A stretch of 64,000 nt of DNA from Roseibacillus persicicus. GTDB taxonomy: Bacteria; Verrucomicrobiota; Verrucomicrobiia; Verrucomicrobiales; Akkermansiaceae. The notes beneath the pieces were generated by a model. It did no database searches, had not been told where the DNA came from, and worked only from the letters and a program-made list of their open reading frames with translations. Location of the stretch: NCBI RefSeq assembly GCF_014651675.1, contig NZ_BMXI01000002.1, positions 215,695-279,694 of the forward strand. The letters run 5' to 3'. The translations under genes and the position numbers were made by a program. Position 1 is the first letter of the stretch. Each line of letters opens with the position of its first letter. Positions 45,855-51,017 of this stretch are shown one piece after another.

Positions 45855-46650
45855 AACCTCCCGCAGCCCCGTCGCTTGAAAGGAAGTAAGAGTTGTCGCT
45901 TTTCAGCACGATGAGTTGAGTCTGCTCGGTGGGGCGAACGGGGATCACATTGTTTTCTTGGATTTCCCATCCCTTGGGACCTTTGTAGGAGAGCTCGTAG
46001 ACGGCTCGTCCATTGGCTGCATTGATGACGCTGTCCCGGCCGGGCTTGAGGTCTGCTTTTTGTTTGCCGCTAAACCGCATCGAGATGTCGAAGGGTGAGA
46101 GGTTGTGAACCCTTAGCTTACCTGGGGGAAGTTTGCTGGGGTCGTCGTTGATCACGTAGGGTTGATAGAGTCCTCCTCCCGCAGGAGCCAAGAGGACGGT
46201 GGCGCGTTTGGTGTTGGTGGGGAGCTTGACGAGGGCGACGAGACTGGGCTCGGTTTCGCGGCGTCGGAATAGTTCGCGGACGATGGGATCTTTACTTTTC
46301 GAGAGGTCTTCCAAGTCTTCGGGCTTTTGTTCCACCACCAGAGGTTTGGACTCGTGCTCGGCATCTTCCGCCGAGATTTCCTCGTCATTTCCAGAGCTGT
46401 TTGAACCGCCTTTTTGATGGACTTCCATCAGGGCAGGTCCCGTGTATCTGGCAGGTGTTGAGTAGGTAAAGGGAAGGGCAGTGAGGGTTTCTCCTTTGCC
46501 TTCGGTCTTCAGGCTAAGTCCTTCGATGGTGTCGCCCCAAGCGACGAGGTCGACGGTCATGGCGACCTTGGCTTCACCCTGTGCGGAGAGAGGGAGCAAG
46601 GAGGCGGCGAAGAGAGCAAGGAATGCCGGGAGTGCGACGTTAAATTTCAT
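45817..46650 (-). CDS. exported protein coupled to Verru_Chthon cassette A
   Basis: This is a 277-residue exported protein from ATG 46650 (MKFNVALPAFLALFAASLLPLSA). The open frame reaches 46695, but those residues overlap the gene upstream and carry no signal. The N-terminal mature part has beta strands (KVAMTVDLVAWGD), then an acidic low-complexity stretch (about residues 85-115), then a fold with FDISMRFSGKQKADLKPG and YELSYKGPKG. No family is recognised. Its start overlaps the last 11 nt of the Verru_Chthon A gene, so the two are co-translated. It also overlaps the convergent ATP-grasp gene by 38 nt. Confidence 0.75.
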   Translation of the reverse strand: MKFNVALPAFLALFAASLLPLSAQGEAKVAMTVDLVAWGDTIEGLSLKTEGKGETLTALPFTYSTPARYTGPALMEVHQKGGSNSSGNDEEISAEDAEHESKPLVVEQKPEDLEDLSKSKDPIVRELFRRRETEPSLVALVKLPTNTKRATVLLAPAGGGLYQPYVINDDPSKLPPGKLRVHNLSPFDISMRFSGKQKADLKPGRDSVINAANGRAVYELSYKGPKGWEIQENNVIPVRPTEQTQLIVLKSDNSYFLSSDGAAGGFMQIVILRRSAS

Positions 46651-49600
46651 TTTCGGAAAGCCAGCGGAAAGAGATGATTTTGAATTTGCGTCCAAAGGTT
46701 ATGTTTGTGCCGTTGAGTTTGGAAGGTGCGGTTTCGGGTGGATCGGATGGGTCCAGATATTCGATCTGTCTCTGCACGGTAGCTTCCGCATAGGCGGTGG
46801 CGAGGATTTTTCCTGCAGGGCTGTAGGAACGACCACAGGTTCGAATGGTGAAGGTGTCCGAGCGGACTGCGAGAGAAGGGGCTAGCACTTGCAAGAGGTC
46901 GCCTTGGGTCATCCAGCCGGGAATGGCGGTCGAGCGGTAGCCCTGCTCATTGCTGGTGGTGGAGTCGTAGAGCATTTCATCATCCGCGAGGATGCTGGCT
47001 ACGGCGCCGAAGTTGTTGTCCCGCGAGGTGACGGCCCAGTCCTTTTTCCGACGGCTGAAATCCGAGGGGCGGTCCGAGGTGTCACTACCATCGAGGTCGG
47101 CGCGGGGAGCTCCATTTTTGTGCGCGAGGGTAACCCGGTCCTGATTGGCCGAGATGCCGGAAAAGCCATTGCGTGCTCCAGTGTGACTGATGTTGACGCC
47201 GCTCTCGTCCAGGGCCTGCTGCAGGGCTCCACTTCGGCTCAGGGCCGGTTTATCGGAGATGTCAGCCAAGGCGCGGTTGACGAAGTGTGACATGGAAAGA
47301 AAGGGTCCACGCATCCGCACCTGGCGAGTGATCTCTGTGGCGAGTTCTTCGACCTCGCTGTTGGTGAGAACACGGTAGCCGGCGTACGAGTCATCCGAGT
47401 TTCCGGTTGGAGGGGTAGAGGGCCTTTCAATTTGTTCCAGGCTTCGAGGGAAGCTGGCTTCACTGGATTCTTCTCCGGTGGTGGGATGGACCCGATAGCG
47501 GGTGGAGGAAAGCAAGGCCTTCCAAGCATTGACGTTTGTAGAGCTGACGTTGAAGGCACCTTCCACGAGCAATTCTTTTGCTACCAAAGACGGATCGGAA
47601 AGGGCGCTGCTATCTTGCAATGAGTCAGCAAGAATCAAGTTCGGATTGCGGGGAGTACTCGACCTCTGATCCAAGGTGGAAAAGTAGTATCGGTCCCACA
47701 AGCAGGAGTTGAGAATGTGAGCCATGTCGAAGTAGGTGCGTCGCAGCTGGGTGGCACCGCTGTGATTGGGCGCGCCGACGAGCTCGTAATCCGCTCTCAA
47801 CTCGCTGATGGAATCGCGTTTGACGAAGGGGGTGGCGTAGGAGTTGCCAACAGCATAGGCAGGTTGGTGCCCGATCGAGACCCGTTCTTCATCATTGGTG
47901 AGATCGGCGTGTTGGAACTGGGCAAGAGAGGAGAAGCTACGGGGGACGGTGTAAAGGATCGTGGACTCGGAGCCCCGCACGTTGGAGTAACCCCAGCGGA
48001 CCGGGTTGAGCCCCAGGTTGCGGGTGAAGCCGGTTCCCGTGTCGCCACCTGGGGCGACAAAGGGGAGTAGGGCTGCGCTATCGTTACTTTCCATAAAGAA
48101 AGGAGGGGGATTGTAACTGGCAATGGGCTTGCTGAAGTTTGTGGCTTGCAGGTTGAAGTCTGCGAAGGTGCGCAAGGTCGATCCTCGTTGGCCGAGCTCG
48201 TAGTCACGAGGCATCAGGTTGATATAGTCCATCCCCGGCTGGCTAATCTGGAAGGCATAGAGCATCAAGGGGACCGGACCGGTGAGGTTGGGGGTGACGC
48301 TGCGGTCAAAGTTGCGGGCGGTCGGATTCCAGTAGCCGTTGTCGAGCTCGAAGCGTTCGATGCGTTTCAGGAATGTGCCGCGGGAGTTGTCTTCGGTCCT
48401 CATCTCGAGGGCAACAAGTGTGGTCTGCCAAGACTCGCGGATATCGAGCTTCTGAGGCAGGGTCATGACGGCGGTAGTTTGCAGCTCAAGACAACTATTG
48501 AAGTCGAATGGATTGACCGAGTCGACCGGGGCCATGGGTACACTGATTGCGCGTGTGGCGGTTCTGGCAGTTCGCACGACCTTGCCGGAATTGGTGAAAG
48601 CGTAGGCTTCTCCCGGGGCCAAGCTCCCGGCCGGAATGGTGAAAACCGCCTGGTTAAAGACTGCTGCCTCGCGGCTTGTCCGGGTCAGGGTTTCATCCGC
48701 AGGGAAAAATATACAGGTGGAGTTGTGCTGCCAGATCCGGGCGGGCAAGTTGCCGGTTGGAGTTTGGCTTTTGAATTGAAACTGGAGATCATCTTCCCAC
48801 TTCAATGGCACGGAGTAGGGATTGGCGATGGTGATGGCAACTTTGGCGCAAGGATAGACGCGATATTGGGTCTCGGATTGCTTGACCGTTCTGACGCCTA
48901 ACAGAAGGCGCACGTCGATGATGGAGGGAGCTATGCTGATGGAATCGTCGCCGCCATCGCCGCTTACGATCAAAGCGCCTCCGTCGAGGTTTTCAGCTCG
49001 ATTCACAAAGTCACTGATGTGGTCCCAGGTCAGGTTATCGAGACGGGAGAAGGGCGTGCCGGTTGCCTGGGGAATCACTCGTCCGCCTTGGATGGGGTAA
49101 TTGTCGTAGGCGTCGGATGGAGGGCTGGAAGAGAGCCCGTTGACCAAGCCGGTGGTGAGGTCGACCTTCAACCCTCCTTCGAGAGTATTGGTCAGCAAGC
49201 CGCGGCTGGTCGTGGAGGCCGAATGAAAGAGAGTTTCCCCGCCGGATTGACCCGCCTGGGGCTTGCCTAGCAAAAGCTCGCTGGACGGCAGGGTGATGAT
49301 GCTGGTGAGACGGCTTTGCTCGGCATCACTCGGGGTGGGGTAACCGGGAAGTTCATCGGTTGACTCCCAACCCCGGCGCTGGGCGGTCAGGGTGTCGTAA
49401 TCGTCCGGAAACTCGGTTTGTTCGCTGATGTTGATGCGGGATTTCACTCCCTCATCGCCGACCCACCAGGCATAGGCTCCCGTTCTGACCGTTCCATCGT
49501 TTGAACGAATGGGAACCAGCGGCGCAGAGACGTAGGAATCCATGGTCCCGCCGTTGTTGCCAAAGGTATTGGCTCCCACCAGGACAATTGCGGCGTCCGA

Positions 49601-50140
49601 ATCGGCGGGCGATCCGTTGTTGCCGACCTGATAGCGTGAGTTGGCAGGATTGACATCCGCGTTGTTGCCATTGTCGGTAGGGGAGCTGACCAACCACCGA
49701 AGCAGTTCGGGGCTGGGGGTCTTTTCATAGATGAGAGAGGGGTCGTCATTGTTGGCAAAGACGCCGGTCCAATAGCGGGTCCCCGCCTGCACGCCAGTTA
49801 GCCCCTTCGAAGTTCCGTCCAGCGAAGTGTTGTTGCCCGGGCTGGCGCCATTGGCCAAGGGTTCGCCCAAAGCTGTTCCGGCGATATCGGCGGTCGCGGT
49901 CACTCTCTGGTCGGGGCCGGCATATTGCTGGAGTTCACCAACCGCTATCATCAGTGCCATACGGGCGTTTGCCCGGGCCTCTGCTCTCGCGGTCCCATTT
50001 TGAGAGCTTCGGATGGAGGTTGAAGACAGTGACAGGAGCCCAACTGCAATCAATGAGAGTAAAATCAACATCGTGATAGTCACCACCAGAGAAAATCCGG
50101 ACCCCTGTGCTGGGCGGGTTGATTTATTTTGTAAATTCAT
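46640..50140 (-). CDS. Verru_Chthon cassette protein A (pseudopilin-like)
   Basis: This is a 1166-residue protein with a type IV pilin-like N-terminus: GSGFSLVVTITMLILLSLIAVGLLSL is the prepilin cleavage site and hydrophobic helix. The RAEARANARMALMIAVGELQQYAG segment that follows is the standard mark of Verru_Chthon cassette protein A. The rest is a long globular part with no clear enzyme motif. In other genomes it heads a four-gene cassette (A-D) of pseudopilin-like proteins; here only A is recognisable, followed by one unrelated exported protein. It is probably displayed or secreted by a type II or type IV pilus-like machine. Confidence 0.88.
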   Translation of the reverse strand: MNLQNKSTRPAQGSGFSLVVTITMLILLSLIAVGLLSLSSTSIRSSQNGTARAEARANARMALMIAVGELQQYAGPDQRVTATADIAGTALGEPLANGASPGNNTSLDGTSKGLTGVQAGTRYWTGVFANNDDPSLIYEKTPSPELLRWLVSSPTDNGNNADVNPANSRYQVGNNGSPADSDAAIVLVGANTFGNNGGTMDSYVSAPLVPIRSNDGTVRTGAYAWWVGDEGVKSRINISEQTEFPDDYDTLTAQRRGWESTDELPGYPTPSDAEQSRLTSIITLPSSELLLGKPQAGQSGGETLFHSASTTSRGLLTNTLEGGLKVDLTTGLVNGLSSSPPSDAYDNYPIQGGRVIPQATGTPFSRLDNLTWDHISDFVNRAENLDGGALIVSGDGGDDSISIAPSIIDVRLLLGVRTVKQSETQYRVYPCAKVAITIANPYSVPLKWEDDLQFQFKSQTPTGNLPARIWQHNSTCIFFPADETLTRTSREAAVFNQAVFTIPAGSLAPGEAYAFTNSGKVVRTARTATRAISVPMAPVDSVNPFDFNSCLELQTTAVMTLPQKLDIRESWQTTLVALEMRTEDNSRGTFLKRIERFELDNGYWNPTARNFDRSVTPNLTGPVPLMLYAFQISQPGMDYINLMPRDYELGQRGSTLRTFADFNLQATNFSKPIASYNPPPFFMESNDSAALLPFVAPGGDTGTGFTRNLGLNPVRWGYSNVRGSESTILYTVPRSFSSLAQFQHADLTNDEERVSIGHQPAYAVGNSYATPFVKRDSISELRADYELVGAPNHSGATQLRRTYFDMAHILNSCLWDRYYFSTLDQRSSTPRNPNLILADSLQDSSALSDPSLVAKELLVEGAFNVSSTNVNAWKALLSSTRYRVHPTTGEESSEASFPRSLEQIERPSTPPTGNSDDSYAGYRVLTNSEVEELATEITRQVRMRGPFLSMSHFVNRALADISDKPALSRSGALQQALDESGVNISHTGARNGFSGISANQDRVTLAHKNGAPRADLDGSDTSDRPSDFSRRKKDWAVTSRDNNFGAVASILADDEMLYDSTTSNEQGYRSTAIPGWMTQGDLLQVLAPSLAVRSDTFTIRTCGRSYSPAGKILATAYAEATVQRQIEYLDPSDPPETAPSKLNGTNITFGRKFKIISFRWLSENEI

Positions 50141-50489: not shown

Positions 50490-51017
50490 TCAGTTCAGCT
50501 TGCCAGCCCGGTGCTTGGCCACAGCCTCCAGGGCGTGATCAATGTGCTTGGTCGGGGTGACGGAGTGGTCGACCCAGATAAGCTTCTGATTGTGAAAGAG
50601 GTAGCTGAATCGTGCGGGCCTGTTGTTGGGATGCGGCACCTCAAAGGCATCGCACATCGAGCCATCCACGTCGCAGAGCAAGGGGAAGGTCAGATTGTAT
50701 TTGTCGGCGAATGCACGCTGCTTCGAGATCGAGTCCATGGAGACTCCCAAGGCGCGGACGCGGGCGGCGGAAAGTTTCTGTGCTGAAGACTCCAGCACTT
50801 TACACTGCTTGATTCATCCAGGGGTGTCCGCTTCTGGATAGAAGAAGACAAGGAGGTAATTGGTGGCGCCGTAATCCCGCAGGGAAACGAGGCGGTTGTA
50901 TTGGTCGCGCTCGAAGAGATCGGGCAACCGGGACTGCTTCGCCTCGGGGACGAATTTGCCCGTATTCATAGCGCAGCCCACAAGGAGCAAGGCCATGGCG
51001 AGGGAAAGAAGCTTCAT
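50490..51017 (-). CDS. peroxiredoxin lipoprotein with in-frame TGA at the peroxidatic cysteine: probable selenoprotein
   Basis: This is a 175-residue AhpC/TSA-type peroxiredoxin if TGA 50816-50814 is read through as residue 68. The start is ATG 51017 (MKLLSLAMALLLVGCAM, with lipobox LLVGC). Upstream of the TGA the frame has the fold's first half and FFYPEADTPG; downstream the same frame continues IKQCKVLESS and runs to the end (FPLLCDVDGSM, RPARFSYLFHNQK). The TGA stands exactly at the peroxidatic position of the PxxxTxxC motif, and a resolving-type Cys is at residue 72. A hairpin 15 nt downstream fits a bacterial SECIS. Selenocysteine insertion is therefore the best reading; a plain nonsense mutation is the alternative. 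The gene is monocistronic with its own terminator. Confidence 0.82.
50780..50798 (-). promoter_or_regulatory. candidate bacterial SECIS element
   Basis: The coding strand reads GTGCTG-GAGTCTT-CAGCAC: a perfect 6-bp stem, extendable by G-U and A-U pairs to 8 bp with a GUC tip. It starts 15 nt after the in-frame TGA. In E. coli fdhF the SelB-binding hairpin lies at similar distance and has a loop containing GGUC. It lies within the coding sequence, as bacterial SECIS elements must. Confidence 0.7.

What the first reader, a model, noticed from the sequence alone, without database searches (positions are those of the whole stretch)
50490..51017. Selenocysteine peroxiredoxin lipoprotein: TGA replaces the peroxidatic cysteine
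Seen: the frame of a lipoprotein peroxiredoxin is interrupted by one TGA (50816-50814) at the exact position of the reactive Cys in YPEADTPG-x, then continues without frameshift (IKQCKVLESS) through the rest of the domain to a normal stop. Known: bacterial peroxiredoxin families include selenocysteine forms, with Sec at this site. Inference: a nonsense mutation landing precisely on the catalytic codon in an otherwise intact gene, with a SECIS-like hairpin after it, is unlikely by chance. A U-x3-C spacing to the resolving cysteine also differs from the usual C-x4-C, and a lipid-anchored seleno-peroxiredoxin would be unusual. Most gene callers would split this gene in two.
Basis: partly seen in the sequence, partly recalled or inferred. 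Interest (0 to 1): 0.88.

Follow-up and report, generated by a model that had tools for sequence, protein, structure and literature searches.

The report
Lipoprotein peroxiredoxin using selenocysteine
In a Verrucomicrobiota bacterium, a probably membrane-anchored peroxide-destroying enzyme is encoded with a stop codon (UGA) where its reactive cysteine should be, and comparison with about 20 relatives shows the codon is almost certainly read as selenocysteine, making this an unusual branch of a known class of selenium enzymes.

Summary
Confirmed. Window 51017-50490 (-) is one 175-codon gene for a PrxQ/BCP-type peroxiredoxin with lipobox LVGC. Its only internal stop, TGA at 50816-50814 (codon 68), replaces the peroxidatic Cys. 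The genome encodes SelA, SelB, SelD and tRNA-Sec(UCA). The codon is TGA in all 20 representative lipoprotein relatives (one cultured: Roseibacillus ishigakijimensis); a second group also has TGA; other homologues have TGC/TGT. A hairpin after the UGA covaries across 40 Sec genes and is absent from Cys homologues. Selection after the TGA is as strong as before it, and TGA alleles track the Sec machinery. So it is a selenoprotein, not a pseudogene or sequencing error (inferred from sequence; selenium was not measured). Sec-peroxiredoxin is a known family. What appears new is the branch: lipobox-bearing, Sec-only, canonical resolving Cys (+5) lost, another Cys (C122, +54) invariant. Novelty: new variant of a known kind.

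The parts
50490..51017 (-). Selenoprotein gene: lipoprotein PrxQ/BCP-type peroxiredoxin, 175 aa with Sec68
50814..50816 (-). In-frame UGA (codon 68), predicted selenocysteine at the peroxidatic position (T65-x-x-U68)
   Evidence: same codon is TGA in 20 of 20 lipoprotein relatives
50780..50798 (-). Bacterial SECIS-type hairpin GUGCUGG-AGUCU-UCAGCAC: 7 pairs, 5-nt loop, 15-nt spacer from the UGA
50973..51017 (-). Lipoprotein signal peptide ending in lipobox LVGC (C15 codon 50975-50973)
   Evidence: lipobox-like Cys in all 20 aligned relatives of this clade
50652..50654 (-). Cys122 codon (Sec+54), invariant in the lipoprotein clade; candidate resolving Cys (inferred)
50802..50804 (-). Cys72 codon (Sec+4), among relatives seen only in Roseibacillus ishigakijimensis
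50610..50612 (-). Arg136 codon, the conserved active-site Arg of the Prx fold
   Evidence: Arg in 20/20, 26/26 and 83/84

Best explanation
The gene encodes a selenocysteine peroxiredoxin of the PrxQ/BCP fold that is exported and lipid-anchored. The UGA at codon 68 is decoded as Sec by SelB and tRNA-Sec, guided by the hairpin 15 nt downstream; the terminal UGA lacks this context and stops translation. At the membrane the Sec selenolate, activated by T65 and R136, attacks H2O2 or organic (possibly lipid) hydroperoxides and becomes a selenenic acid. Because the canonical resolving Cys at +5 is gone, that acid is resolved either by the invariant Cys122 (intra- or intermolecular selenylsulfide) or directly by an external thiol. 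Shown by sequence: frame, codon, machinery, hairpin covariation, purifying selection, clade-wide conservation. Inferred: Sec incorporation itself, lipidation, location, substrate, and the role of Cys122. The confidence given is for the selenoprotein-peroxiredoxin reading; the resolution step is split among the rivals.
For: Own genome: selB 324 bits, selA 459 bits, selD 374 bits with one in-frame TGA in SSCAG-U-ASK, tRNA-Sec(tca). TGA at the same codon in 20 of 20 non-redundant lipoprotein relatives and in 26 other relatives; Cys in 84 others. 31 of 33 genomes with TGA here have selA, against 50 of 160 others (Fisher p 9e-12); the other two, incomplete, have selB. Hairpin: contiguous pairs closing the loop average 4.2 and 5.0 in the two Sec groups and 0.64 in Cys genes; synonymous-codon null about 1.4. 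Covariation score 0.467 against 0.171 shuffled, 41 cells changed on both sides, signal lost when slid 1-3 columns. dN/dS 0.119 both before and after the TGA against the nearest relative. AlphaFold mean pLDDT 90; best PDB matches are BCP/PrxQ enzymes, Z 22-23. Cys122 is in 20/20 of this clade, 0/26 of the other Sec group and 3/84 of Cys forms, while Cys at +5 is lost in 20/20 and kept in 25/26 and 82/84.
Against: No protein or selenium data. The hairpin of this one sequence is weak against shuffles. Several relatives in the lipoprotein clade have only 3 contiguous pairs next to the loop and need a bulge for more, and three of the second Sec group lack the stem in this register. The synonymous null and the Fisher test ignore shared ancestry. 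Cys122 as resolver rests on one clade (one event), and no coordinates were available to measure the Sec68-Cys122 distance. The lipobox was recognised by eye, not by a trained predictor.
Confidence: 0.95

Rival explanations
1. Pseudogene or sequencing error: the TGA is a nonsense mutation (or miscalled TGC/TGT) in a Cys peroxiredoxin gene.
For: A single TGA one base away from TGC/TGT is what an error would look like, and the genome has an intact Cys paralogue (C8:18878-19294, L083).
Against: The same codon is TGA in separately assembled genomes of many species. dN/dS after the TGA is about 0.12. A covarying hairpin is specific to TGA genes. TGA alleles track the Sec machinery.
Confidence: 0.01
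2. The UGA is read by another route, for example a genome-wide UGA=Trp/Gly code or leaky read-through with an ordinary amino acid.
For: The frame is open on both sides of the TGA.
Against: TGA is the terminal stop of this gene and of several relatives. The recoded codon replaces the catalytic Cys. Full Sec machinery and a SECIS-type hairpin are present.
Confidence: 0.02
3. A Sec protein resolved by C72 (the U-x3-C pair of the first reader), as an atypical 2-Cys-type enzyme.
For: C72 lies one residue from the canonical resolving position and is shared with Roseibacillus ishigakijimensis.
Against: 18 of 20 relatives have Val there, including the third genome of the same genus that has the gene, so it cannot be the mechanism of the clade. 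It could still be a local refinement.
Confidence: 0.15
4. A Sec protein working as a 1-Cys-type (1-Sec) peroxiredoxin: no internal resolver; an external thiol reduces the selenenic acid and Cys122 is structural or a relic.
For: Cys at +5 is lost in 20/20. Three of 84 Cys homologues and the PrxQ of Xanthomonas campestris (ALCRAF, alignment) also have Cys at the Cys122 position, so it need not have arisen to resolve Sec.
Against: Cys122 is invariant across 20 divergent members (down to 34% identity to the window protein), whereas its column is otherwise mostly A/I/V.
Confidence: 0.4

Closest known systems
Selenocysteine peroxiredoxin (Sec-Prx; COG1225, TxxU motif; PMC1088965, PMC13188914)
   Same: COG1225-type peroxiredoxin, Sec at the peroxidatic position in T-x-x-U, bacterial SECIS directly downstream, Cys homologues widespread
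   Different: This branch carries a lipobox, has lost the Cys at +5, has an invariant Cys at +54, and no Cys form was found inside the branch. I found no mention of lipoprotein forms or of Verrucomicrobiota in the papers searched.
PrxQ/BCP peroxiredoxins (M. tuberculosis BcpB 5epf, S. solfataricus Bcp1 3drn, X. campestris PrxQ 5iiz)
   Same: Fold (Z 22-23 over about 146 residues), P-x3-T-x2-C/U motif, active-site Arg
   Different: These use Cys and are mostly soluble and cytoplasmic (own knowledge); resolving Cys at +5 or elsewhere (the C84S mutant of X. campestris PrxQ is among the structures)
Second Sec group seen here (GG-U-TKQ[AV]C, relatives of the same order)
   Same: TGA at the same site, same hairpin register, same bacterial families
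   Different: No lipobox Cys aligned, Cys at +5 kept in 25/26, Cys122 absent
Own Cys paralogue L083 (C8:18878-19294)
   Same: PrxQ domain with N-terminal signal sequence
   Different: C-x4-C, no lipobox, no hairpin

Membership tests
Bacterial selenoproteins | In-frame UGA aligned with Cys of homologues, open frame beyond it | tested here: met
Bacterial selenoproteins | SelA, SelB, SelD and tRNA-Sec in the genome | tested here: met
Bacterial selenoproteins | Stem-loop directly after the UGA with a small apical loop containing G | tested here: met
   criterion as worded in PMC1088965
Bacterial selenoproteins | Selenium in the protein | not testable with these tools
   Needs 75Se labelling or mass spectrometry
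Sec-peroxiredoxin (COG1225, TxxU) | T-x-x-U with Sec at the peroxidatic position of an AhpC-TSA domain | tested here: met
   T65 and U68 invariant; PF00578 E 1e-22
PrxQ/BCP peroxiredoxins | PrxQ fold and closest structural neighbours | tested here: met
   Top PDB matches BcpB, Bcp1, X. campestris and X. fastidiosa PrxQ
PrxQ/BCP peroxiredoxins | Score over NCBI's curated cut-off for thioredoxin-dependent thiol peroxidase (NF006960) | tested here: not met
   71.4 bits against a cut-off of 140: a relative, not an equivalog
Atypical 2-Cys PrxQ | Resolving Cys at +5 (C-x4-C) | tested here: not met
   Lys73 here; lost in 20/20 of the clade
Bacterial lipoproteins | N-terminal signal peptide with lipobox Cys | tested here: met
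   LVGC here, lipobox-like motif across the clade, read from the alignment
Bacterial lipoproteins | Lipid attached to the Cys | not testable with these tools
   Needs labelling or mass spectrometry

The most novel reading that the evidence does not exclude
A distinct subfamily of seleno-peroxiredoxins that became lipoproteins and moved the resolving thiol from +5 to Cys122, giving a membrane-anchored, Sec-dependent hydroperoxidase that may detoxify lipid hydroperoxides at the cell envelope of Verrucomicrobiota.
Probability: 0.35. Interest if true: 0.65.

Novelty: new variant of a known kind. Interest (0 to 1): 0.52.

Why it matters
Standard gene callers would cut this gene at its active site, leaving a 67-residue fragment and a headless domain in place of a working enzyme. 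The branch is always Sec in the genomes searched, which suggests that Sec rather than Cys is needed for this exported enzyme. A cultured relative (Roseibacillus ishigakijimensis) makes this testable. It also raises the question of how an exported peroxidase without the usual resolving Cys is recycled.

Tried and rejected
Rfam scan of the window: no hits, so the hairpin matches no Rfam family at the gathering score. Promoter/terminator scan: nothing useful for the gene. Gene neighbourhood: not conserved across the clade; only the downstream 1166-aa ORF is shared with R. ishigakijimensis, and another group has a BD-FAE esterase and a TauE/SafE exporter beside the gene, so no partner gene was inferred. 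Fold of the selD region after its TGA: inconclusive. Plasmids: only matches below 60% identity. Literature on lipoprotein Sec-Prx, on Roseibacillus and selenium, and on E. coli BCP Cys99: nothing usable. Sequencing error, pseudogene and alternative code: rejected as stated under rivals. Atomic distances: coordinates of the model are not given out, so the Sec68-Cys122 geometry was not measured.

Full report
OBSERVATION. The minus strand from 51017 to 50490 is one frame of 175 codons with a single internal stop, TGA at 50816-50814, and a terminal TGA. Read through, the protein is MKLLSLAMALLLVGC... with a lipobox and an AhpC-TSA/PrxQ domain. Alignments to BCP structures place codon 68 on the peroxidatic Cys.

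SEC MACHINERY. The genome (5.28 Mb, 92 contigs, 97% complete) has SelB (C3:76538, 324 bits, over the curated cut-off), SelA (C21:40942, 459 bits), SelD (C13:136723, 374 bits) and a tRNA-Sec with anticodon UCA (C16:156798, 59.6 bits; ARAGORN agrees). SelD itself has an in-frame TGA in SSCAG-U-ASK. Two further AhpC-TSA/thioredoxin-fold genes have an in-frame TGA in UPFC and UPPC motifs. By this reading the genome uses Sec in at least four genes.

HOMOLOGUES. A search of 193 relatives and a scan of 84,980 species genomes gave three sets at the site: (A) a lipoprotein group, mostly TPG-U-[IV]KQV, 20 non-redundant members, all TGA; (B) a second group, mostly TGG-U-TKQ[AV]C, 26 members, all TGA; (C) 84 Cys members, mostly TPG-C-T..AC. 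Group A is one side of a branch in the tree (SH-aLRT 90). The labels need at least four changes over the whole tree, though well-supported branches do not force more than one per group. All secure members of A are Verrucomicrobiota; one is the isolate Roseibacillus ishigakijimensis KCTC 12986 (L091), 82% identical.

CO-OCCURRENCE. 33 of the 193 genomes carry a TGA-site gene; 31 of these have selA, and the remaining two, 70% and 86% complete, have selB above the cut-off. Of the other 160, 50 have selA (Fisher p 9e-12, not corrected for relatedness).

HAIRPIN. The 42 bases from the UGA align without gaps in 40 Sec genes, and a stem of positions 20-25 with 31-36 (UGA = 1-3) closes a five-base loop. 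Contiguous pairs next to the loop average 4.2 in A and 5.0 in B, against 0.64 in Cys genes and about 1.4 in synonymous recodings of the same proteins. Five of six pairs show changes on both sides; the covariation score is 0.467 against 0.171 (sd 0.025) for shuffles and at most 0.125 when slid. RNAalifold finds the same stem without help. In the window the stem is GUGCUGG-AGUCU-UCAGCAC, seven pairs; R. ishigakijimensis keeps it (GCGCUGG-AGUCU-UCAGCGC) with a U-A pair replaced by C-G. In the window sequence alone the hairpin is only modestly better than shuffles, so the case rests on the comparison.

SELECTION. Against R. ishigakijimensis dN/dS is 0.119 before and 0.119 after the TGA; other pairs give 0.07-0.45 after it. 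dS is near or above 1 in several pairs, so absolute values are rough, but the downstream part is clearly kept as protein.

STRUCTURE. The AlphaFold model (12 sequences, Sec given as Cys) has mean pLDDT 90 and pTM 0.84; the nearest solved structures are M. tuberculosis BcpB (Z 23.4), S. solfataricus Bcp1 (23.1) and X. campestris PrxQ (22.0).

RESOLVING THIOL. In group A the canonical resolving Cys at +5 is absent in 20/20, whereas a Cys at +54 (C122 in ...MCDAF) is present in 20/20. In groups B and C the reverse holds: Cys at +5 in 25/26 and 82/84, Cys122 in 0/26 and 3/84. Cys122 is the best internal candidate, but a Cys is also seen there in X. campestris PrxQ (alignment), the swap reflects one ancestral event, and the distance to Sec68 was not measured. 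A 1-Sec mechanism with an external reductant is about equally likely.

COMPARISON WITH WHAT IS KNOWN. Sec-Prx with TxxU (COG1225) was already the second most frequent known selenoprotein family in the Sargasso Sea set (PMC1088965) and is in a current catalogue of prokaryotic selenoproteins (PMC13188914); repeated Cys-to-Sec change in Prx was reported in PMC1794560. The gene is therefore a member of a known family. I found no mention of lipoprotein forms or of Verrucomicrobiota in the passages searched, but most subscription papers are not in the library.

VERDICT. Selenoprotein status 0.95. The mechanism beyond Sec chemistry is open. Novelty: a new variant of a known kind.

Noticed in passing
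L173 (G000:C17:109401-109757, -): AhpC-TSA family gene of the same genome with in-frame TGA in RGNW-U-PFC, followed by GUCAGC-AGUUG-GCUGAC: a further likely selenoprotein (UxxC type).
   Followed up: partly
L174 (G000:C10:127622-127993, -): Thioredoxin-fold gene of the same genome with in-frame TGA in SASW-U-PPC: likely selenoprotein of UxxC type.
   Followed up: partly
L018:1481-2532 (G000:C13): SelD with in-frame TGA (SSCAG-U-ASK), a Sec-containing SelD of the known kind.
   Followed up: partly
L055-L082 (26 of them): A second Sec-peroxiredoxin group (GG-U-TKQ[AV]C) widespread in relatives; some genomes hold both groups (G028, G032, G040, G093, G108).
   Followed up: partly
L105 (CAKZQE010000174.1): A contig binned as Gammaproteobacteria joins a different N-terminus to a verrucomicrobial-looking Sec region near the contig end: probably a chimeric or misbinned contig.
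   Followed up: no
L046, L048, L106-L108: The active-site loop reads NTFW-U or DTFW-U instead of DTPG-U; T-x-x-U is kept but Pro-Gly is replaced.
   Followed up: no
window 46640-50140 (-): 1166-aa ORF with a pilin-like N-terminal helix (GFSLVVTITMLILLSLIAVGLLSLS) and no Pfam match, downstream of the peroxiredoxin and about 62% identical in R. ishigakijimensis.
   Followed up: partly
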